Shown in pieces: positions 1 through 8,528 of a stretch of 64,000 nt of DNA (positions are counted from its first letter, which is position 1; each line of letters opens with the position of its first letter). This DNA comes from Halosimplex rubrum (GTDB lineage: Archaea; Halobacteriota; Halobacteria; Halobacteriales; Haloarculaceae). The notes under the pieces are model-generated. The model worked only from the letters and a program-made list of their open reading frames with translations, was not told where the DNA came from and made no database searches. Where the stretch lies: NCBI RefSeq assembly GCF_013415885.1, contig NZ_CP058910.1:3410001-3474000 (forward strand), read 5' to 3'. A program made the translations under genes and the position numbers.

Positions 1-2714
1 TACGAGGAGTTCGCGGTGACGCTCGGCTCGGTGTAGCCCTCCTCGGTACCCCACTCGCCGTAGCCGGTCGTCGAGTAGGGGACCGTCATCGTGAACGTCC
101 CGTCGTCGCCGGTCTCGGCCTGCTGGCGGTAGACGAACGTCGAGTTCGTCGAGGGGACCTGCATCTCGACGGCCGCCGTGACCGTCGCGTTCGCGGGCCC
201 TTCACCCTCGATAGTCCCGCCGGGGACGCGCTCGAACGACTTCACCCAGTTCGAACTGCTGGGCTGGAGCGCGCCGAGCACACCGGGCTGGCGCAGCGAG
301 GTCTGGAAGGCGCCCTGAGCCGTCTTCCGGAGGCCGAGCTGGTACCGCTGCGATTCGAGGGAGCTGTTGTCGCTCCCGTGGACCATCCGGTAGTGCTCCA
401 GTGCGGGCACGCGCTCGCTCGGGAACTGCCCGACGCCGCCGATCTTCGAGGTCGGGTCGTTCTCGACGTACTCGCGGGCCTCGGCCATCGTGTCGAAGTT
501 GATCGTCCCGTTGCTCATCCGGATCTGCCCCTGCCCGCTCTGTGCGTCCTGTAGCTCCCAGTCGACGACGATGGGAGTCGGCTCCACGGCGCTCCCGTGG
601 AAGTTGTACAGGCGGACGGCCGTGGAGTTGTAGTACTTCTGATGCTGCAGTCGGAAGGTCTGGTAGGAGCCCTGCTGGCCGGTCTGGTAGTAGATCCAGT
701 CCCCTCTTTCGGTGTAGTACTCCCCTTGAGAGATGTTCCCGTCGGAGTAGAACTGGAAGGGCGCGAAGTACTTGCCGCCGAGCCGGAGCGACCCGCCGTT
801 AGGCCGGAAGTAGGACTGAGCGGTCTCGGTCATCTTCCAGTCGACCATGACGTAGCGGGTCTCGGCGTCATCCTCGCTCACGTCGTTCATGACCTCGTTG
901 GCGGCCGACTCGTTGGTCGACAGCAGGAAGTTCGCGGCCTGATCGGCGCCCTGCTGGAAGGGGTTCGCGACCGGTATCCGCTCGCCCATGACGGTGATGT
1001 AGTGGCCGTAGTCCCACCACGACATCACGCCGTAGTACCCGTCGGGATAGTCGAAGTCGTCGGTCCGTTCGAAGGTGCCGTAGTAGGGGACGGCGTCGGC
1101 GTTGTCCGCGCCGCCGTACGTGCCTTCATCCGGCGTGTTGCCCTCCATCCAGCCGAGCGTACCGTTCCAGGCGACAGAGCCCTGGCCGGCGCCCCCGCTC
1201 CCGCTCGTCGCCTGCATCGACACCGCCGCCGGATACACCAGCGGCGCGAACAGGACGAGGACGATCGCGACGATAGACAGTATCTGATAGGTTTCGATGT
1301 CGGTATCAGGTCGAGAGATGCCGGAGAACCTGGCGAGCTGTCCGATGACCAGCGCGGTCATCACGGCGACGGTGATCGAGAAGTAGTAGTCGAACCGGCG
1401 CTGCGTGAGCGTCGCCAGCAGCATGAACACCGTCCAGACGGCCAGCAGAGACCACTCGGCGTCAGGCCGGTCGTAGAAGTGCCGCACCGCGACGAACGCG
1501 ACGCCCAGGAGCGCGATGAAGAGCGTGAAGCCGTACTCGGGGAACAGGTTCCCGAACGGCATCGGCTGGGCCTCGGCGACGGTGCCCGCGGTGTCGGTCA
1601 CCGTGAGGCCGACGACGCGCGTCGTCTGGTTGACGAAGAATCCCCAGATGTCCGGAAGCGCCAGCGCCATCGCGACGGCGATACCCAGGAGGATACCGCC
1701 GACCGCGAGCGGGTACTGATAGTTCGGGAGGCCGCGAGATTCCCACTCCCGGGCGAACCAGGCGAGGAAGACGCAGCCGGCTGCGACGCCGAACGCCAGC
1801 ATCGGCTGGACCAGATTGTAGCTCGTCGCGCTGAGCGCGATCTCTTCCATCGCGGCGAGACTCAGGACGCCGGCCGTCGAGAGCGTGACCGCGCCCGCGA
1901 TGGCGACGTGTTCCGGGCTCTCGCCGTGGGCATACTCCGAAGCGAGTTCGATCGTGAAGTAGACGCCGAGGATGCCGAGGAGGAAGACGCCCGGCGCCCA
2001 CGTCCAGAGGTAGACCGCGATGGCGGTCCCTGCGACGATCGACCAGCCGACCGGGCGGCGCAGCGCGTCGACGTCGCGCGCTTTGAACAGCTCCCAGACG
2101 GGCTTTTCGTCCTGCGCGACCGACACCGCGACCATCGTCGCCAGGACCGCGATCGTCTGGAACAGGGCCTCGGCGACGTGGTGGTCGTAGAAGCCGACGG
2201 TACCGCGCTGTGCGAACGTGCTCCCCGCCAGCGCCAGCGCCGCGACCGCCACAACGCCGCCAAACTTGCCGGTGACCCGTTTCCCGATGAGATACACCGG
2301 AATGGCCGCGAGCGTTCCGAAGACCGCAGGGGCGAACAGGGCGACCAGACGGACAGTGTGATCGCTCGGGTTCCCGAGACCGACCACCAGGGCGGCGGTG
2401 GCGACCAGCTGGTCCATCACGGTACCGAACTGGCTGGAGTGCGTACCGGTTGGGAACCGCGTCCAGGGGTCGAACGGACTCGTCGCGGGCCAATGCTGGA
2501 CAGTGTACTGTACCATCCTGTAGTGATACCACGGGTCGTAACCGCCGAAATAGACGGTTCCCTCTACCAGAAAGTCCTTCCAGTTTCTGACCCGACTCCA
2601 CAGCATGAACCCGAGGAGGGCGACCATCGCCGGGATGTGGTAGTACTCACCCACCACGTCGGCGAGATCACCGGGTTCGTCGATGTTTTCGATCTGACCA
2701 CGCCACTGACTCAT
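1..2714 (-). CDS. aglB: Dolichyl-phosphooligosaccharide--protein glycotransferase AglB (3' end outside window)
   Basis: Catalyses the final step of archaeal N-glycosylation: transfer of the lipid-linked glycan to Asn of Asn-X-Ser/Thr sequons on the outer face of the membrane. 904 codons are visible from the ATG at 2714, and the frame is still open at base 1, so the C-terminus is missing. The N-terminal half has many hydrophobic segments, as in the STT3/AglB membrane domain. A GYDPWYH motif near residue 58 fits the first catalytic Asp motif. The STT3 hallmark WWDYG is at residues 566-570 (bases 1005-1019), followed by a soluble beta-rich domain. It is the only agl gene on this side of the cysteine-rich island. 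A TATA-like element lies about 25-35 bp upstream. The family call is firm. Confidence 0.95.
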   Translation of the reverse strand, partial: MSQWRGQIENIDEPGDLADVVGEYYHIPAMVALLGFMLWSRVRNWKDFLVEGTVYFGGYDPWYHYRMVQYTVQHWPATSPFDPWTRFPTGTHSSQFGTVMDQLVATAALVVGLGNPSDHTVRLVALFAPAVFGTLAAIPVYLIGKRVTGKFGGVVAVAALALAGSTFAQRGTVGFYDHHVAEALFQTIAVLATMVAVSVAQDEKPVWELFKARDVDALRRPVGWSIVAGTAIAVYLWTWAPGVFLLGILGVYFTIELASEYAHGESPEHVAIAGAVTLSTAGVLSLAAMEEIALSATSYNLVQPMLAFGVAAGCVFLAWFAREWESRGLPNYQYPLAVGGILLGIAVAMALALPDIWGFFVNQTTRVVGLTVTDTAGTVAEAQPMPFGNLFPEYGFTLFIALLGVAFVAVRHFYDRPDAEWSLLAVWTVFMLLATLTQRRFDYYFSITVAVMTALVIGQLARFSGISRPDTDIETYQILSIVAIVLVLFAPLVYPAAVSMQATSGSGGAGQGSVAWNGTLGWMEGNTPDEGTYGGADNADAVPYYGTFERTDDFDYPDGYYGVMSWWDYGHYITVMGERIPVANPFQQGADQAANFLLSTNESAANEVMNDVSEDDAETRYVMVDWKMTETAQSYFRPNGGSLRLGGKYFAPFQFYSDGNISQGEYYTERGDWIYYQTGQQGSYQTFRLQHQKYYNSTAVRLYNFHGSAVEPTPIVVDWELQDAQSGQGQIRMSNGTINFDTMAEAREYVENDPTSKIGGVGQFPSERVPALEHYRMVHGSDNSSLESQRYQLGLRKTAQGAFQTSLRQPGVLGALQPSSSNWVKSFERVPGGTIEGEGPANATVTAAVEMQVPSTNSTFVYRQQAETGDDGTFTMTVPYSTTGYGEWGTEEGYTEPSVTANSS

Positions 2715-3126
2715 TGACGGAACCAGTCCCATGGCGCGCATAAGCCTTTTGACTGGGAGGTGGATGACGAAATTATCGGCCTGGAACGGCTGAAACTCGG
2801 GATCCGGAGTTCCCAGCGAGCACCACAGGCTCACCGAACGGTCGATACGGCTGATTCAGGTCCGCCCCGATGGGGGCTGTCCGACGATCCGATGACTGGA
2901 CCCGGTACGCCAGGCCGGTTTGATAGAGCAGCGCCCAGATTAGGTGAAAATAAACGAGTCACCGCCACCAATAGATGAAACCAGGCGGTATCGTCGATCC
3001 GGCGCGAGGAGTCACTTCGGAGGGCGAGACGGCCACATTCGATGCATTAGTGAGTTGTCACGACCGTCTTCGGGAGCCGTATCGACAGGTTCGGTCAGAC
3101 GGACGATCGAGACCACGCTAGCGGCC
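2715..3126. other. Intergenic region between aglB and the isoprenyl-synthase-like gene
   Basis: About 410 bp that hold the aglB promoter at the left end. The rest shows no convincing gene: the short open frames at 2760-2978 and 2944-3279 have no recognisable protein features, and the second runs into the 3' end of the neighbouring gene on the other strand. An AT-rich patch near 2940-2955 resembles a promoter but leads to no convincing gene. This gap is the left border of the accessory island. Confidence 0.5.
2738..2750 (-). promoter_or_regulatory. Putative aglB promoter (TATA-like)
   Basis: Read on the minus strand, an A-run followed by GGCTTATG lies 24-36 bp before the aglB ATG. This is the usual TATA spacing for a leaderless or short-leader haloarchaeal transcript. 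Based on position and composition only. Confidence 0.35.
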
Positions 3127-3996
3127 TCACTCGGAAACCGTCTCGGAGACCCACGTGTCCAGATCGACAGCGATCAGCGGTTTGACCCGTTCGGCGGTGC
3201 GAGTCGGCAGTGTCTCGAGATGGTCGTCGAGCGCTTCCTTGCGCGCCCGCAGTCGCGCGAGCGCCTCGTCTTCCGGTAGCAGACTCCAGACGTTCCACGG
3301 ATACGCTTCGTCACCGTACTGGAAGCCGTCCAGCAGGAGCTGGTCCAGCTCGAAGTACAGGGTACCGATCGCCGCGTACCGCTCGACAGTCTCCCGGTCG
3401 GCGCCAGCGACGACACCGCACGTCCCGGTCATCGAACCGAACAAGTTCGCCTGTTTGGTGAGGATATCGAAGTACGTCTCGGCGCTCGGTTCTGCCGTCA
3501 GTTCGTCGGTGAAACACTCCACCATCCAGACGGCGTCGTCACACCAGTACGACCGCGCTTCGGGGCCCAGTCGGCCGACGTGATCGGCCAGGACCGGCAT
3601 CAGGTACTCGTGTGTGATGAACACCTCCGCTTCCTTCCCGTGGGCGACGTCACCGTCGATGATGTCGTCGGTGATATCGTAGTACTCCTGGACAAGGAGC
3701 GTGAACCGCAAGAGGTCCTCGAGTGCGTCCGTGTCCGAGTCCCGCGCGAGGTACAGCTGTTCGACGAGGTATTCGATCCGTCTGGTCGGCCGGCGTTTCC
3801 GCTTCGGGAGGGCGTCGTTCTGCGAGAACGCGATCGTTCGGACCCAGTCCCGTCCAGTTTCCGAGGGCATCTCGGCCACGATATCGTCTGTCAACCTGCG
3901 TATTTTCTCGTCGAACTCCTTCATTTCGGGCTTCAAGCGCTGAATCTCCTCGTCCGTCAGGAGTGTCGGTTTCCGTACGAGCACAGTGGTTGACAC
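3127..3996 (-). CDS. Isoprenyl diphosphate synthase-like protein with a degenerate second Asp motif
   Basis: 289 aa, GTG start. The all-helical order matches polyprenyl synthetases. A first Asp-rich motif DDIID (in ITDDIIDGD, about residue 112) is followed by a HGKEAEV segment resembling the usual R-R-G-x-P-x-x-H stretch. Then comes KQANLF, equivalent to the KTxxLF segment, and then GTLYFELDQLLLDGF, where the family normally has FQxxDDxxD. The second Asp of that motif is Gln and the spacing is altered. It may therefore be catalytically altered, or a prenyl-binding or terpene-cyclase-like relative. It is transcribed divergently from the three cysteine-rich secreted-protein genes across about 210 AT-rich bases, so co-function with them is plausible but inferred. 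A housekeeping GGPP synthase role is unlikely given the motif loss. Confidence 0.7.
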   Translation of the reverse strand: MSTTVLVRKPTLLTDEEIQRLKPEMKEFDEKIRRLTDDIVAEMPSETGRDWVRTIAFSQNDALPKRKRRPTRRIEYLVEQLYLARDSDTDALEDLLRFTLLVQEYYDITDDIIDGDVAHGKEAEVFITHEYLMPVLADHVGRLGPEARSYWCDDAVWMVECFTDELTAEPSAETYFDILTKQANLFGSMTGTCGVVAGADRETVERYAAIGTLYFELDQLLLDGFQYGDEAYPWNVWSLLPEDEALARLRARKEALDDHLETLPTRTAERVKPLIAVDLDTWVSETVSE

Positions 3997-4204
3997 CTTC
4001 CGGCCCTCGGTTAAAAAATTATCGACAAATTATATTATGAGTCGATAGGTGTCGGAGCGGCCGCCTGTTCGTCTCGACGGACTCCCGGGTAGCGCCGGTA
4101 GGCGCCGAACACCGTCGAGACACGACACTGAATCATCCGCTAGATCCATTTGATAGAGATAAACTTAACACAAATTTTATTACGTACCTACATTTATCGA
4201 TCGA
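3997..4204. promoter_or_regulatory. AT-rich divergent promoter region
   Basis: About 208 bp between divergent genes. On the minus side, AT-rich TATA-like stretches at about 4010-4023 and 4026-4040 precede the GTG at 3996. On the plus side, an AT-rich block at about 4158-4185 (AACTTAACAC followed by AATTTTATTAC) precedes the ATG at 4205. The composition is clearly more AT-rich than the surrounding chromosome. No clear operator palindrome was seen. Confidence 0.5.
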
Positions 4205-4852
4205 ATGCCTGCTATGTCAGATAGATATAACTCGACGACGAATTCGAGTGTCAATCGCCGGAACGTGCTTCGATCGATCGGTGCGACGGGTGCGACCGCG
4301 GCGGGGTTGAGTGGGGTCGCGTCCGCGGATACCCGTCGGGAGTTCAGTGCTGCCGAGATCGAGGCAGTCCGATCGGAGTATCGGGATCTCGAGTCGATCG
4401 AGTCCGCACTCGCCGAGGAACAGGAGCTACTCGACGCCCTCTCCGAAGAAGGTATCATCCCTCGAGCCACGGTGAGCACGCTGGGGATCGAAACGCTCGG
4501 CAAGCCAAGTTCGCCGGGAGATATGAACGTCACGGTGACGCCTGCAGACACTGACGACGGAGTGACCCCGAGGATCGTGGTCGACGGTGTGATCGGGGAG
4601 AGTGTCGTCAGTCTCAAGTTCGAACCCGATACGGAGAACGCCCAGGCGATCGTGAAGCGACCGTCCGCCTCCGAGTTCGAACAGCTGTACTCGGCGGGTT
4701 CGAGCGGTTGTGGCAGCGACTGCGACAACTGTAAGTGTACGTGCAGCTCGGTAAACATGTCTGTCTGCTGTAGCTGGGACTACTCGAAGAACCCCGCCGA
4801 GTGTCAGGGATACAAGCAAGAACCGGATTGTTACTGCAACGACGGCTGGTAA
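4205..4852 (+). CDS. Tat-exported pre-proprotein with 10-Cys C-terminal domain (paralogue A)
   Basis: 215 aa (an alternative ATG at 4214 gives 212). A Tat signal is visible: NRRNVLR at residues 17-23, a weakly hydrophobic Gly/Ala segment, and a cleavage site after ASA at residue 41. The pro-region has a charged helix (EAVRSEYRD, then LLDALSEEGII) and a beta-rich part (DMNVTVTP, then TPRIVVDGV). The last 47 residues (169-215) hold ten cysteines in a CxxxCxxCxCxC start, a Cys-Cys pair and a CYCNDGW end. There is no lipobox or C-terminal anchor, so the product should be released outside the cell. Architecture recalls precursors such as halocin C8 (Tat signal, long pro-region, small Cys-rich mature peptide), but the sequence is not recognisably that family. 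Paralogues B and C follow in the same direction. Function unknown; a secreted antimicrobial or signalling peptide is an inference. Confidence 0.85.
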   Translation: MPAMSDRYNSTTNSSVNRRNVLRSIGATGATAAGLSGVASADTRREFSAAEIEAVRSEYRDLESIESALAEEQELLDALSEEGIIPRATVSTLGIETLGKPSSPGDMNVTVTPADTDDGVTPRIVVDGVIGESVVSLKFEPDTENAQAIVKRPSASEFEQLYSAGSSGCGSDCDNCKCTCSSVNMSVCCSWDYSKNPAECQGYKQEPDCYCNDGW

Positions 4853-4910
4853 CAATCCGGGTCCGAGGTCCCGTCCTCGACAGACGAACTGCTGAAACGC
4901 GGCGATACAA

Positions 4911-4917
4911 TTTTTTT
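4911..4917 (+). terminator. Poly-T terminator after paralogue A
   Basis: A run of seven T on the coding strand, about 60 bp after the stop codon of paralogue A, in GC-rich surroundings. Archaeal transcription terminates at such T-runs without needing a hairpin. It suggests that A and B are separate transcription units. Confidence 0.45.
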
Positions 4918-5010
4918 CGGGAACTGGGATTTCGACCCGAGACTGCTGACGGGTCCCATCGGCTGCAAATCATGTCGCTAGTAATTAATAATAGGAAGTG
5001 ATTTATCCCG

Positions 5011-5021
5011 AAATATTTTTA
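5011..5021 (+). promoter_or_regulatory. Putative promoter of paralogue B
   Basis: AAATATTTTTA lies 31-41 bp before the ATG at 5052, in a local AT-rich stretch (4980-5030). This matches a TATA box for a short-leader transcript. Confidence 0.5.
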
Positions 5022-5051
5022 CAGCTTCGTTGAAACTTTCGACACGCCGCC

Positions 5052-5663
5052 ATGAACGATAGCAACGAAGACGTGACGGCAGAGCCGGGAATCAATCGAC
5101 GACGTGTCCTCCGCTCTATCGGCGCGACGGGCGCCACAGCGGCAGGGATGAGCGGTATCGCCTCCGCCGGATCTCGCGAGGAGTTCAGCGAATCGGAGGT
5201 CGAAGCCGTTCGAGCGGAGTATCGGGACCGATCGTCCGTTGTCGCCGCCCTCGCCGACGAGACGGCACTCCTCGAAACCCTGGCCGACGCCGACACCATC
5301 GACGAACCGTCCGCCGAAGCGGTCGGTATCGAGTCGGTGGGGTCCCCGGAATCGGCCACCGACATGAACGTCACCGTCCAGCCTACCGAAGACTCCGGCG
5401 ACGTGACACCGGAGATCGTCGTCGACGGCGACATCGACGGGACGACGGTCCAGATCCAGTTCGAACCGGAAGGGTCCGGAGCTCTCGCCGTCGTGAAGTC
5501 AGACGACTCGTCCGGCTACGATCAGGTGTACTCCGCCGCGGACGCCGGCTGTGGGAGCGACTGTGACGACTGTAACTGCACCTGCGTCTACAACAACTTC
5601 TCGACGCTGTGCGACGGGACGTACCGGCAGATCGCCGAGTGTCACTGTAACGACGGCTGGTGA
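5052..5663 (+). CDS. Tat-exported pre-proprotein with 8-Cys C-terminal domain (paralogue B)
   Basis: 203 aa. Closest relative of paralogue A: the Tat region NRRRVLRSIGATGATAAG is almost identical, with cleavage predicted after ASA at residue 39. The pro-region keeps EAVRAEYRD, LLETLADADTI, TDMNVTVQP and TPEIVVDGD. The last 37 residues (167-203) hold eight cysteines. They keep the CGSDCDDCNCTC block of A but are shorter, lack the Cys-Cys pair, and again end in Cys-x-Cys-Asn-Asp-Gly-Trp. Pro-domain conservation with a variable tail looks like tandem duplication followed by diversification of the mature peptide. It has its own AT-rich promoter, and no modification enzyme is encoded beside it other than the divergent isoprenyl-synthase-like gene. 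Function unknown. Confidence 0.85.
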   Translation: MNDSNEDVTAEPGINRRRVLRSIGATGATAAGMSGIASAGSREEFSESEVEAVRAEYRDRSSVVAALADETALLETLADADTIDEPSAEAVGIESVGSPESATDMNVTVQPTEDSGDVTPEIVVDGDIDGTTVQIQFEPEGSGALAVVKSDDSSGYDQVYSAADAGCGSDCDDCNCTCVYNNFSTLCDGTYRQIAECHCNDGW

Positions 5664-5803
5664 GCCGTCGATCGGGTGCCCGTGACGCCTCGGTGACGGA
5701 TCCAGTCTGGTGACCGGTCGGTCCGGGCCGGTCCACCAGCGGTCGTAGAGATCGAGAATTAGCAGATTTAAAATATGTAGGTCTGTAGTGTGCTTAAGAA
5801 AGT

Positions 5804-5816
5804 ATTAAATATATAC
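5804..5816 (+). promoter_or_regulatory. Putative promoter of paralogue C
   Basis: ATTAAATATATAC lies 29-41 bp before the ATG at 5845, within an AT-rich tract that begins near 5757. A strong TATA-like element. Confidence 0.55.
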
Positions 5817-5844
5817 CGTTTCAAACCACTGTCGGAGTTTGCCA

Positions 5845-6498
5845 ATGTCACGAAGCACCGAACGAGACGGTTTCAATCGGCGTAGCGTGCTCAAATCCGT
5901 CGCGGCAGGGACTGCAGCTACCGTCGGGGCCAGCGGGGTCGCGAGCGCGTCGTCCTCCGGTAGCTCGATCAGTCTCGCGACGAAGCGCGATATCACGGCC
6001 GGGTACAGGGACATCGACACCGTCCGCCAGCAGTTCCGGGCCCACAGAGACCTCCTGGAAGCCGCAGTCGAGGCTGGACACGTGGACGAGGCGTCGTTCG
6101 ATATCTTTGACATCGAGGTCGACGGGATGACCTCGGAGCGAGGCGACGGCCTCGGCTTCAACGCGCGCGAAGTCGACGGAGAAGTGATCCCCGAGATCCG
6201 CGTGCTCCACCGGACCGACGAGGGCGAAGTGATGTTCGGTATCCGACCGACGGAGGACGCCGGCTACGTGAACTACTTCCCCGCCGGGGAGGAAAACACG
6301 GTCGAACGCGTCTACGAGAGGAACTGGAGTTACAACTCGGCCGACTGCTGCGCTACCTGTATGACGTGTGGCGGCAACTGCAACGACAACGAGTCGTGCG
6401 AGACCCTGACGTCCTCCTGTTGTTGCTGGGCGACGTGTAAGAATATGACGTGCGCCGGCTACCGCTGCGTCTGTGAGAGCGACTGCGGCTGGCTGTAG
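5845..6498 (+). CDS. Tat-exported pre-proprotein with 14-Cys C-terminal domain (paralogue C)
   Basis: 217 aa from ATG 5845. The Tat motif is NRRSVLK (residues 11-17), with the signal ending at ASA (residue 35). The pro-region is diverged from A and B but keeps the same order: GYRDIDTV, LLEAAVEAGHVDE, VIPEIRVLH and a beta-rich end. The last 50 residues (168-217) hold 14 cysteines, including a Cys-Cys pair and a Cys-Cys-Cys run, and close with ESDCGWL. At 28% Cys, such a tail should be a tightly disulfide-bonded or metal-binding mini-domain. Because Tat usually exports folded proteins, some disulfides or metal may have to be in place before export. Function unknown; same class as A and B. Confidence 0.85.
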   Translation: MSRSTERDGFNRRSVLKSVAAGTAATVGASGVASASSSGSSISLATKRDITAGYRDIDTVRQQFRAHRDLLEAAVEAGHVDEASFDIFDIEVDGMTSERGDGLGFNAREVDGEVIPEIRVLHRTDEGEVMFGIRPTEDAGYVNYFPAGEENTVERVYERNWSYNSADCCATCMTCGGNCNDNESCETLTSSCCCWATCKNMTCAGYRCVCESDCGWL

Positions 6499-6666
6499 GC
6501 GACTGTTCGCCGTGAGCGGGCCCGCATGAGCGGCTGCCGTCCGCTGCGGCGAACGCCACTCCGCCCCGCGTTCGTCGGACCTGTCACACGCTCGTCGGGC
6601 CGCATTATCGAGCGACGACTTGCGTGTCGTCTCTGCGACCGAATAGTCAACATTTCAATGATATAG

Positions 6667-6680
6667 AAAAATTAATATTT
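6667..6680 (+). promoter_or_regulatory. Putative promoter of the CLPC membrane protein gene
   Basis: AAAAATTAATATTT lies 23-36 bp before the ATG at 6703. The spacing fits a leaderless haloarchaeal promoter and supports 6703 as the start over upstream TTG codons. Confidence 0.5.
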
Positions 6681-6702
6681 GGTCAGTATCCATTTCGTGG
6701 TG

Positions 6703-7512
6703 ATGCTCGAACAACTCAAACAGAAAGAGTATACGGGGTCAAACAGGTGTCTCCCCTGCACCGTGGTCAACACTGTTATCGCGCTCGTCGTCGGTGCAGT
6801 GATCGGGAGGTCCTCGAAACGAGCGGGCGCGGTGGCCATCGTCGTCTCGGGTGTGCTCATCTATCTGCGCGGCTATCTGGTCCCGGGGACCCCGACACTG
6901 ACGAAGGAGTACATGCCCGAGTGGGCGCTCGAATTGTTCGGCAAGGAACCGCCGACGACGGGCGGAATCGAAGTCGACAGGGACGAGGAGGAGGCGGAGT
7001 TCGAGCTGGACGCGGAGCAGTTCCTCCACGGTGTCGACGCCATCGAACCGTGCCCGGACGCGGACGACGACTGCCTCGTCGACGAGTTCGGCAGACGCTG
7101 GCACAGCGAGATGGAGTCGTTGCAGGGCCGAGAAGGCCTGAAACCGGTCGTGAGCGACCGGTTCGACCTGGACGAGTCGGAGTTCGAGATAGAACCCCAC
7201 GACGACGCCCGGTTGCTGATCGTCGAGGGCGACCACGTCGCGAAGTGGCCGTCAGAAGCGGCACTGATCGTGGATCTGGCAAGTGCGGGAATTCTCGCCG
7301 AGCGGTCGGATCGCTGGGACGACCTCGGAACCGTCCAGCGCGGGCAGGTCCTGCGAGGCCTGCGGATCTTCCTCGACACGTGTCCGACCTCGGACGAGCC
7401 GGTGACGATGGGCGAGGAGACGGTCGAATCCTGTTGCAGCACGCGCGACGTGGTCGCGGTCACCTGTGCGGAGAGCGGCGCGCGCCTGTTCGAACAGCCG
7501 ATCGCCGACTGA
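6703..7512 (+). CDS. Membrane-anchored protein with N-terminal CLPC motif and Cys-containing C-terminal domain
   Basis: 269 aa. The short N-terminus KEYTGSNRCLPCTVVN carries a CxxC motif directly before two transmembrane segments (about residues 19-34 and 40-58), followed by LVPGTPTLTKEYMPEW. The rest is an acidic soluble domain of about 200 aa. It has a second cysteine group near the C-terminus (DTCPTSDEP, ESCCSTRD, VVAVTCAESGARLFE). Cysteine pairs at both ends suggest redox activity or metal binding. It follows the cysteine-rich secreted proteins by 204 bp on the same strand but has its own promoter, so a role in their oxidation or in immunity is only a hypothesis. The protein also looks like a conserved haloarchaeal family and may be unrelated to the island. 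Confidence 0.75.
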   Translation: MLEQLKQKEYTGSNRCLPCTVVNTVIALVVGAVIGRSSKRAGAVAIVVSGVLIYLRGYLVPGTPTLTKEYMPEWALELFGKEPPTTGGIEVDRDEEEAEFELDAEQFLHGVDAIEPCPDADDDCLVDEFGRRWHSEMESLQGREGLKPVVSDRFDLDESEFEIEPHDDARLLIVEGDHVAKWPSEAALIVDLASAGILAERSDRWDDLGTVQRGQVLRGLRIFLDTCPTSDEPVTMGEETVESCCSTRDVVAVTCAESGARLFEQPIAD

Positions 7513-7598
7513 GGCGGTCCGACGGCGCGAGCGCGGTCCGGCCGGTCACCGCGGGATCGAACGGAAACCATATCTTCCCGGTCACCCTCACCGGAGGC

Positions 7599-8528
7599 AT
7601 GCGCGTCTCCGTCGTGCTCTGCGAGCACACGATGGACCGCTACGACGCGGTCACCGAGGCCGCTCGTAGCGTCCTCGACCAGACGTACGACGACGTGGAA
7701 CTCGTCTTCGTCAGCGACGGCAACCCCGAGGTCTACGAGCGATTCGAGGCCGACTTCGGCGACCGCGAGGACGTCGTCACCCGGTGCAACGACGGGAACC
7801 GCGGCCTGCTCGTCAGTCGCAACAACGGCGCCGAGGCCGCCAGCGGCGACGTGGTCGCCTTCCTCGACGACGACGCGGTCGCCCACCCCGAGTGGATCGA
7901 GCGGCTCGTCGCCACCTACGAGGACGACGACGCCGTCGCTGCCGGGGGCCGGATGGCCCCCATCTGGGTCGACGGTCCGGTCGACTTCCTGCCGGCGGAG
8001 TTCTACTTCCTGATCGGCGCCACCTACCGCGGGTTCGGCGACGGCCGCGACACCCCCGGGGAGGTCCGCAACACCAACGGGTCGAACATCTCCTTCCGGC
8101 GGGACGTGTTCCTCGACCTGGGCGGGTTCGACGACGAGATCGGCGGCCGCAAGGGCGACAAGAACCTCCAGGGCGGCGAGACGGAGGTCTGCGCCCGGCT
8201 GCAGGCGGAGTACGGCGAGGGCGTCAGCTACGTCCCCGACGCGAAAGTTGGTCACAAGGTGTTCGCCTACCGCACCGAGCCGGCGTGGCTGCTCGACCGG
8301 GCGTTCTGGCAGGGCTACTCCAAGCGCGGCATGCAGCAGTTCGTCCCCGGTTCGGCCGAAGAGGAGGGCGACTTCCTCGGAAAGATCCTCGGCGAGTACG
8401 TTCCGGGGCGGCTCGCCGGGCTGCTCCGCGACCCCGACGCCACCGCCGCGAAACAGCTCGTCTGGCTCCTCGTCCTGACCGGCGTCGTCGGCCTCGGCTA
8501 CCTCTACGGGGTCGTCAAGTGGCGGTGA
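7599..8528 (+). CDS. Family 2 glycosyltransferase with C-terminal membrane segment (AglG/AglI-like)
   Basis: 309 aa. Begins MRVSVVLCEHTMDRYDAV, a GT-A start, followed by VLDQTYDDVELVFVSDG and the metal-binding VVAFLDDDAV motif (DxD type). After the catalytic domain, a C-terminal hydrophobic segment (LVWLLVLTGVVGLGYLYG) anchors it to the membrane. This is the arrangement of haloarchaeal Agl transferases that extend dolichol-phosphate glycans on the cytoplasmic side. The reading frame is open far upstream, but ATG 7599 is the first codon giving a proper GT2 N-terminus. The GT4 gene 8615-9766 follows on the same strand. The sugar specificity cannot be read from sequence. Confidence 0.85.
   Translation: MRVSVVLCEHTMDRYDAVTEAARSVLDQTYDDVELVFVSDGNPEVYERFEADFGDREDVVTRCNDGNRGLLVSRNNGAEAASGDVVAFLDDDAVAHPEWIERLVATYEDDDAVAAGGRMAPIWVDGPVDFLPAEFYFLIGATYRGFGDGRDTPGEVRNTNGSNISFRRDVFLDLGGFDDEIGGRKGDKNLQGGETEVCARLQAEYGEGVSYVPDAKVGHKVFAYRTEPAWLLDRAFWQGYSKRGMQQFVPGSAEEEGDFLGKILGEYVPGRLAGLLRDPDATAAKQLVWLLVLTGVVGLGYLYGVVKWR

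What the first reader, a model, noticed from the sequence alone, without database searches (positions are those of the whole stretch)
4709..6498. Conserved pro-domain with hypervariable cysteine tails and a fixed C-terminal end
A and B share the Cys spacing C-x3-C-x2-C-x-C-x-C and the ending Cys-x-Cys-Asn-Asp-Gly-Trp but differ in the middle. C has a different pattern with a Cys-Cys-Cys run and ends CGWL. The pro-domain is more similar than the tails. This is the pattern expected for a family of diversifying peptides (as in conotoxins or bacteriocins) with a common maturation or export handle.
Basis: partly seen in the sequence, partly recalled or inferred. Interest (0 to 1): 0.7.

Follow-up and report, generated by a model that had tools for sequence, protein, structure and literature searches.

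The report
Predicted prenylated archaeal cysteine-rich peptides
A salt-loving archaeon carries three exported, cysteine-rich peptide precursors ending in tryptophan next to a lipid-enzyme relative, which suggests that archaea, like some bacteria, may attach an oily tail to that tryptophan.

Summary
Genes A (4205-4852), B (5052-5663) and C (5845-6498) of a haloarchaeon each encode a Tat signal, a cysteine-free domain of about 130 residues and a cysteine-rich tail. They belong to an unnamed family: 43 of 391 Halobacteria-class genomes have a profile match. 62 of 64 extracted precursors have an even number of cysteines after the signal, as expected for disulfides. Where two precursors share a tail type, the tail is as conserved as the pro-domain, with dN below dS. 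The fixed '...GW' end has a better explanation. The minus-strand gene beside A (3127-3996) is a divergent trans-isoprenyl-diphosphate-synthase homologue. It keeps the first Asp-rich motif and lacks the second, like the bacterial tryptophan prenyltransferase ComQ. Among 57 precursor loci, all 5 with this gene hold a precursor ending in Trp, against 1 of 52 without it (p = 1.4e-6; four of the five suggested the idea). Of 10 further loci found by the enzyme, 6 have a neighbour with Trp last or second-last, including two unrelated peptide kinds; 4 do not. Best reading: a Tat-exported, disulfide-rich peptide whose C-terminal Trp is prenylated. Prenylation, target and release are inferred.

The parts
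3127..3996 (-). Trans-IDS-like gene (289 aa, GTG start), proposed Trp prenyltransferase; FARM EYYDITDDIIDGD, no canonical second motif
   Evidence: motifs; fold; profile against PDB sequences; association with Trp-ended peptides
4205..4852 (+). Precursor A (ATG 4205 or 4214)
4214..4327 (+). Tat signal of A (NRRNVLRS...ASA)
   Evidence: sequence; weak Pfam TAT_signal hit below its cut-off
4328..4708 (+). Cys-free pro-domain of A
   Evidence: the B model, confident at about residues 50-160
4709..4849 (+). Tail A, 47 aa, 10 Cys, ends CYCNDGW (Trp codon 4847-4849)
5052..5663 (+). Precursor B, 203 aa, 8 Cys, ends CHCNDGW; tail 5550-5660
5845..6498 (+). Precursor C, 217 aa, 14 Cys, CCC run, ends CGWL; tail 6346-6495
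6703..7512 (+). Membrane protein, a paralogue of a near-universal haloarchaeal family (C-terminal TCP...VESCCST); candidate immunity or processing partner

Best explanation
A, B and C are precursors of small disulfide-rich peptides sent out by the Tat pathway. The Cys-free domain acts as a pro-domain (folding aid or self-protection), and the tail folds with all its cysteines paired. In this cluster the C-terminal Trp (GW; GWL in C) is the acceptor for a prenyl group added by the neighbouring trans-IDS-like enzyme, which has no evident signal peptide and so acts in the cytoplasm before export, as ComQ and PalQ act on ComX and PalX. The product would be a lipidated, disulfide-braced extracellular peptide used as a halocin-like antagonist or a signal; the adjacent membrane protein is a candidate for immunity or processing. 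Shown here: gene layout, family, cysteine parity, predicted enzyme fold and motifs, association of enzyme with terminal Trp. Inferred: prenylation, donor length, cleavage, target.
For: Fold: AlphaFold pLDDT 87.9; Foldseek best E 1.8e-5 and VIA Z 23.8 (rmsd 2.7, 259 aligned) to an isoprenyl diphosphate synthase; profile E 1.7e-8 to the same enzyme. DDxxD first motif in 11 of 11 aligned homologues, DDxxD second motif in 0 of 11; the tree includes four more genes. The own genome has two ordinary PF00348 synthases besides this gene. Association: 5 of 5 precursor loci with the gene hold a precursor with final Trp, 1 of 52 without; the one exception lies in a genome (G312) that has the gene elsewhere. 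New loci found by the enzyme: G399, G312, G259 (Tat-Cys tails), G070 and G074 (34-aa ORFs) end in Trp, G297 (another Tat protein) ends SWI. In G135 two copies sit in a cluster with a relative of the daptide intramembrane protease (E 3.7e-15) and an ABC ATPase. Of the nine precursors with final Trp, seven end in GW, and PalQ favours Gly before the acceptor Trp (PMC13290415 passage). 62 of 64 even Cys, 42 of 43 tail clusters.
Against: No chemistry was seen. 4 of 14 loci with a full-length enzyme have no Trp-ended neighbour (G418, G029, the Haloarcula MAG, G135), although three of these form one clade. C (GWL) and G297 (SWI) carry one residue after Trp, which PalQ would not accept (PMC10853753). 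The two 34-aa ORFs were found by looking for Trp ends, although they resemble each other (last 18 codons pN 0.23, pS 0.68). The invariant Gln cannot be placed surely against the PalQ Gln: two alignments differ by three residues. Two precursors end in W-C; one of their genomes (G244) has no enzyme match.
Confidence: 0.6

Rival explanations
1. The synthase-like enzyme makes a free isoprenoid (terpene or prenyl diphosphate) and merely shares a competition locus with the peptides; the Trp end is structural.
For: The fold is that of ordinary prenyl diphosphate synthases; 4 of 14 loci show no Trp-ended neighbour.
Against: Second Asp-rich motif lost in 11 of 11. Trp ends occur in three kinds of neighbour with no evident sequence similarity (Tat-Cys tails, the G297 Tat protein, 34-aa ORFs). 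Precursors without the enzyme nearly never end in Trp (1 of 52 loci).
Confidence: 0.22
2. The tails are unmodified halocin C8-like antimicrobial peptides: Tat-exported precursor, protease-released C-terminal cysteine-rich peptide, N-terminal domain giving immunity.
For: Same order of parts as ProC8 (Tat, HalI, HalC8; PMC11509114 passage). C-terminal fragments of HalC8 and HalH4 are active (PMC12893001 passage).
Against: No NCBIfam or Pfam halocin match for any of 52 members at E up to 0.1. Does not explain the link of the terminal Trp to the enzyme.
Confidence: 0.35
3. The tails bind metal (metallothionein-like or small Zn/Fe-S modules), folded in the cytoplasm and exported by Tat.
For: Up to 22 Cys in a 57-aa tail (G282); Tat exports folded proteins (general knowledge).
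Against: Even Cys counts in 62 of 64, against 137 even and 83 odd in other ORFs with 4 or more Cys, fit disulfide pairing; metal sites need no parity (general knowledge).
Confidence: 0.1
4. Conotoxin-like diversifying family: tails under positive selection, constant pro-domain.
For: Neighbouring paralogues differ far more in the tail than in the pro-domain (G074a/b, the G244 pair).
Against: dN is below dS in all 26 pairs listed, dS being saturated in many; same-type tails are as conserved as the pro-domain.
Confidence: 0.1

Closest known systems
PalQ/PalX (Paenibacillus alvei), C-terminal Trp prenyltransferase of the isoprenoid synthase superfamily
   Same: Synthase-fold enzyme beside a peptide ending in Trp; Gly before Trp favoured by PalQ and common here; first Asp-rich motif kept
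   Different: PalX has a nitrile-hydratase-type leader and no described Cys tail or Tat signal; PalQ keeps Asp residues at the second motif, the archaeal proteins lack DDxxD there; no assay here
ComQ/ComX (Bacillus)
   Same: Trans-IDS-like enzyme with first motif and without second; small adjacent peptide
   Different: ComX Trp is internal and ComX is a pheromone read by ComP; no ComP-like partner was identified at the window locus
Halocin C8 (ProC8 = HalI + HalC8) and HalH4
   Same: Haloarchaeal, Tat-exported precursor, C-terminal candidate peptide
   Different: No family match; tails shorter; HalI immunity role not testable here
Archaeal lanthipeptides (LanM clusters of Halobacteria)
   Same: Haloarchaeal Cys-containing peptides with antagonistic roles
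   Different: No LANC_like match in 9 of 9 enzyme-bearing genomes; Tat export and even Cys fit disulfides

Membership tests
trans-IDS-like Trp prenyltransferases (ComQ, PalQ, ChrPC P domain) | Isoprenoid synthase fold | tested here: met
   predicted model: Z 23.8, rmsd 2.7, 259 aligned; E 1.7e-8
trans-IDS-like Trp prenyltransferases (ComQ, PalQ, ChrPC P domain) | First Asp-rich motif present | tested here: met
   DDxxD in 11 of 11
trans-IDS-like Trp prenyltransferases (ComQ, PalQ, ChrPC P domain) | Second motif altered for Trp recognition (lost in ComQ) | tested here: met
   DDxxD absent in 11 of 11; QxxxDxxQ instead. PalQ keeps two Asp, so this matches ComQ better
trans-IDS-like Trp prenyltransferases (ComQ, PalQ, ChrPC P domain) | Conserved Gln immediately before the second motif | tested here: inconclusive
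   Q219 invariant in A7, but its register differs; canonical synthases also have a Gln there
trans-IDS-like Trp prenyltransferases (ComQ, PalQ, ChrPC P domain) | Adjacent peptide with acceptor Trp | tested here: met
   Trp last or second-last in a neighbour at 10 of 14 loci with a full-length gene; not met at 4
trans-IDS-like Trp prenyltransferases (ComQ, PalQ, ChrPC P domain) | Transfer of prenyl to Trp | not testable with these tools
   Needs biochemistry
Halocin C8 | Tat-exported precursor with C-terminal peptide | tested here: met
   Twin-Arg motif and layout; export itself not tested
Halocin C8 | Sequence homology to ProC8 | tested here: inconclusive
   No NCBIfam or Pfam halocin hit; whether a HalC8 model is in these libraries was not checked
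Halocin C8 | N-terminal domain gives immunity | not testable with these tools
   Needs genetics; the model has N-terminal helices then a sheet
Lanthipeptide | LanM/LanC-type cyclase in the genome | tested here: not met
   PF05147 in 0 of 9 genomes; control rings in Deinobacterium
Diversifying toxin families (conotoxin type) | Tail faster than pro-domain, dN above dS | tested here: not met
   distant species pairs only, no strain series

The most novel reading that the evidence does not exclude
Haloarchaea have their own peptide Trp-prenylation systems: a trans-IDS-like enzyme acts on C-terminal Trp of several unrelated exported or small peptides. In the window it makes a lipidated, multi-disulfide peptide that Tat carries across the membrane with its prenyl group attached, serving as a halocin or a pheromone. 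It would be peptide Trp prenylation in Archaea and joined to Tat export.
Probability: 0.5. Interest if true: 0.85.

Novelty: new variant of a known kind. Interest (0 to 1): 0.72.

Why it matters
If true, prenylated peptides would extend from Bacillus, Paenibacillus and cyanobacteria to Archaea, whose membranes are built from the same prenyl donors. The substrates would be folded, disulfide-rich peptides exported by Tat, an export route not described for prenylated peptides in the passages read here. The terminal Trp gives a one-mass-spectrum test and a simple rule (trans-IDS-like gene beside a Trp-ended ORF) for mining archaeal genomes. Independently, a large unnamed family of Tat-exported peptides with almost strictly even cysteine numbers would be a new pool of candidate halocins.

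Tried and rejected
Protein-to-DNA scan of genome contigs with B: 68 pattern matches, no relative. Viral contigs: 312 pattern matches, no relative. Plasmids: no match for the enzyme or for A. Pro-domain fold: Foldseek best E 0.87, VIA Z at most 4.9, so no known fold can be named; tail confidence is low, so disulfide connectivity is open. The downstream membrane protein was first taken as a dedicated partner. It is near-universal (358 of 391 genomes), but lies beside the precursor in 7 loci (6, 1), one of which (L079) was found through it. ABC ATPases as a common partner: only in some loci (18-19 bp downstream at both G245 precursor loci). The DurB-like Pfam hit of B (E 0.061) is below its cut-off and treated as chance.

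Rows dropped: of 70 match rows, 62 gave precursors with Cys tails; G068, G003 and G005 were looked at and showed none under my filters; five low-scoring rows (G001, G334, G248, G087, G424) were not examined. Enzyme fragments at G390 and G107 and three weak matches (G164, G011, G242) were not counted. The truncated G193 frame is in the parity count (4 Cys) but was left out of A5. L173 and L175 were left out of the Fisher table because they were found through the enzyme. Four of its five enzyme-bearing loci suggested the hypothesis, so its p value is not a blind test; the ten later loci are (6 yes, 4 no), except that the 34-aa ORFs were picked out by their Trp ends. Papers not held: Makarova 2019 on archaeal peptides and polymorphic toxins and the HalI paper; both may describe parts of the Cys-tail family. 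No held paper on archaeal Trp prenylation turned up in searches, seen as listings; passages of PMC13290415, PMC12144867 and PMC12352652 were read.

Full report
Observation. The three ORFs exist as described. Each has a twin-arginine signal (NRRNVLRS, NRRRVLRS, NRRSVLKS), a domain without cysteine, and a tail with 10, 8 or 14 cysteines. The claim that the pro-domain is more similar than the tail does not hold for A and B: signal 66%, pro-domain 46%, tail 57%, or 45% without shared Cys and with ten gap columns.

Family. No Pfam or NCBIfam family covers the proteins beyond weak Tat-signal hits. A profile of the parts after the signal from 11 members found matches in 43 of 391 genomes of the class. 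I extracted 62 precursors from those matches and two more through the enzyme search. In 62 of 64 the number of cysteines after the signal is even (4 to 22). In the two odd cases (21 and 17) the printed sequences show one cysteine in the pro-domain and even tails of 20 and 16. With one row per tail cluster, 42 of 43 are even. Other ORFs of the same loci with at least four Cys are 137 even and 83 odd; that control includes the Cys-bearing membrane-protein family. This is the mark of cysteines that pair with each other. The model of B shows a confident helix-then-sheet pro-domain (about residues 50-160, pLDDT mostly above 90) and an uncertain tail; no solved structure resembles it clearly.

Tails do not evolve faster. 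Among same-tail pairs from different genomes, tail and pro-domain dN are 0.06 v 0.12 (G390/G393), 0.13 v 0.17 (G312/G204) and 0.12 v 0.22 (G072/G074a), all below dS. Neighbouring paralogues differ sharply in the tail only (G074a/b, the G244 pair). So tails fall into types that are conserved within a type and differ between paralogues. Only species-level pairs were available, so strain-level selection is untested.

The fixed end and the enzyme. Clustering the neighbours of 48 precursor loci showed that the minus-strand gene next to A (3127-3996) has homologues directly beside precursors in three more loci, two in G183 and one in G308. In these four loci, and in no other of the 48, a tail ends in Trp (A and B NDGW; G183 CGWW and CPGW; G308 GGGGW; C ends CGWL; ends listed). 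That gave a prediction. A class-wide search with the enzyme profile and a family search plus one named MAG gave ten more loci with full-length genes. Five have a neighbour ending in Trp: Tat-Cys tails in G399 (TCGW), G312 (CSNW) and G259 (GVGW), and 34-aa ORFs in G070 (LAPW) and G074 (LGVW). One, G297, has a different Tat protein ending NSWI. Four have none: G418, G029, the Haloarcula MAG and G135. The three of these with a single enzyme gene form one clade (98/100), while seven enzymes beside Trp-bearing Tat proteins group together at 93/90. By locus, using precursors found without the enzyme, the table is 5 of 5 with the gene against 1 of 52 without, Fisher p 1.4e-6; the gene-bearing loci include the four that suggested the idea. 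The exception (L181) is in G312, which has the gene elsewhere. About 2% of background ORFs end in Trp (16 of 751).

What the enzyme is. The AlphaFold model (pLDDT 87.9) matches trans-isoprenyl diphosphate synthases over nearly its whole length (Foldseek E 1.8e-5, VIA Z 23.8), and a profile finds the same enzyme by sequence (E 1.7e-8). Profile comparison with haloarchaeal GGPP synthases is weak (E 0.0014, probability 17%), so the gene is very divergent; the genome has two ordinary PF00348 synthases besides it. EY[YF]D-x2-DD-x2-D-x-D is kept in 11 of 11 and the second Asp-rich motif in none. The PalQ paper (introduction and results read) describes ComQ as having the first motif and lacking the second, and PalQ as modifying only a C-terminal Trp. 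A 2026 review (section 2.4 and passages read) says that all characterised trans-IDS-like prenyltransferases act on Trp and that Gly before Trp helps PalQ. Seven of the nine precursors with a final Trp end in GW. G135 adds context: its two copies lie with a relative of the daptide intramembrane protease and an ABC ATPase, a peptide-natural-product setting.

Mechanism proposed. The enzyme shows no signal peptide in its sequence and should act inside the cell; prenyl diphosphates are plentiful in archaea (general knowledge). It prenylates the C-terminal Trp, Tat exports the precursor, an outside protease frees the tail (as described for HalC8 and HalH4; PMC12893001 passages), and the lipid helps membrane action or receptor binding. 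Prenylation, order of steps, protease and target are inferred. Points against: PalQ tolerates no residue after Trp, yet C ends GWL and G297 ends SWI; four enzyme loci lack a visible Trp-ended peptide; and the placing of the invariant Gln is uncertain.

Partners. The downstream membrane protein (6703-7512) belongs to a family found in 358 of 391 genomes. A copy lies beside the precursor in seven loci (six, one), one of them found through it. It is a candidate immunity factor; its ubiquity speaks for a general role from which copies were recruited. Both precursor loci of G245 have an ABC ATPase 18-19 bp downstream, with best matches to drug-resistance and, lower, lantibiotic-protection types, all below the curated cut-offs.

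Place of origin. The window lies on a 4,480,147-base single-contig genome. Its family includes G070, whose contig length equals that of a Halorhabdus salina contig, so the organism is a haloarchaeon of that family; the species was not determined.

Verdict. The peptide family is real and unnamed in the libraries searched. The diversification reading is weak. The Trp-prenylation reading is specific, predicted 6 of 10 later loci, and needs one biochemical test. Makarova 2019 on archaeal antimicrobial peptides could not be read and may cover the Cys-tail family; archaeal Trp prenylation was not found in searches of the held library.

Noticed in passing
L203 (G135) 1852-7899: Two trans-IDS-like genes, a daptide-type HExxH protease relative, an ABC ATPase and a 42-aa ORF with internal Trp (DPWPND): looks like an archaeal RiPP cluster.
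   Followed up: partly
L176 (G297) 4132-4830: Tat-signal protein with a Gly/Ala-rich hydrophobic C-terminal part ending NSWI, next to a trans-IDS-like gene; halocin-like, no NCBIfam match.
   Followed up: partly
window 6703-7512: Family of membrane proteins with a C-terminal Cys motif (VESCCS) in 358 of 391 haloarchaeal genomes, 1-8 copies, with no NCBIfam or Pfam match for the members scanned.
   Followed up: partly
L133 4543-5466 and L140 3047-3964 (G245): ABC ATPases 18-19 bp downstream of two related 16-Cys precursors; possible immunity transporters.
   Followed up: partly
L181 (G312) 3881-4561: Precursor ending ECGW without an adjacent enzyme, in a genome that has one elsewhere: possible modification in trans.
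   Followed up: no
L155 (G193): Precursor frame ended early by a stop codon after four tail cysteines; possible pseudogene.
   Followed up: no
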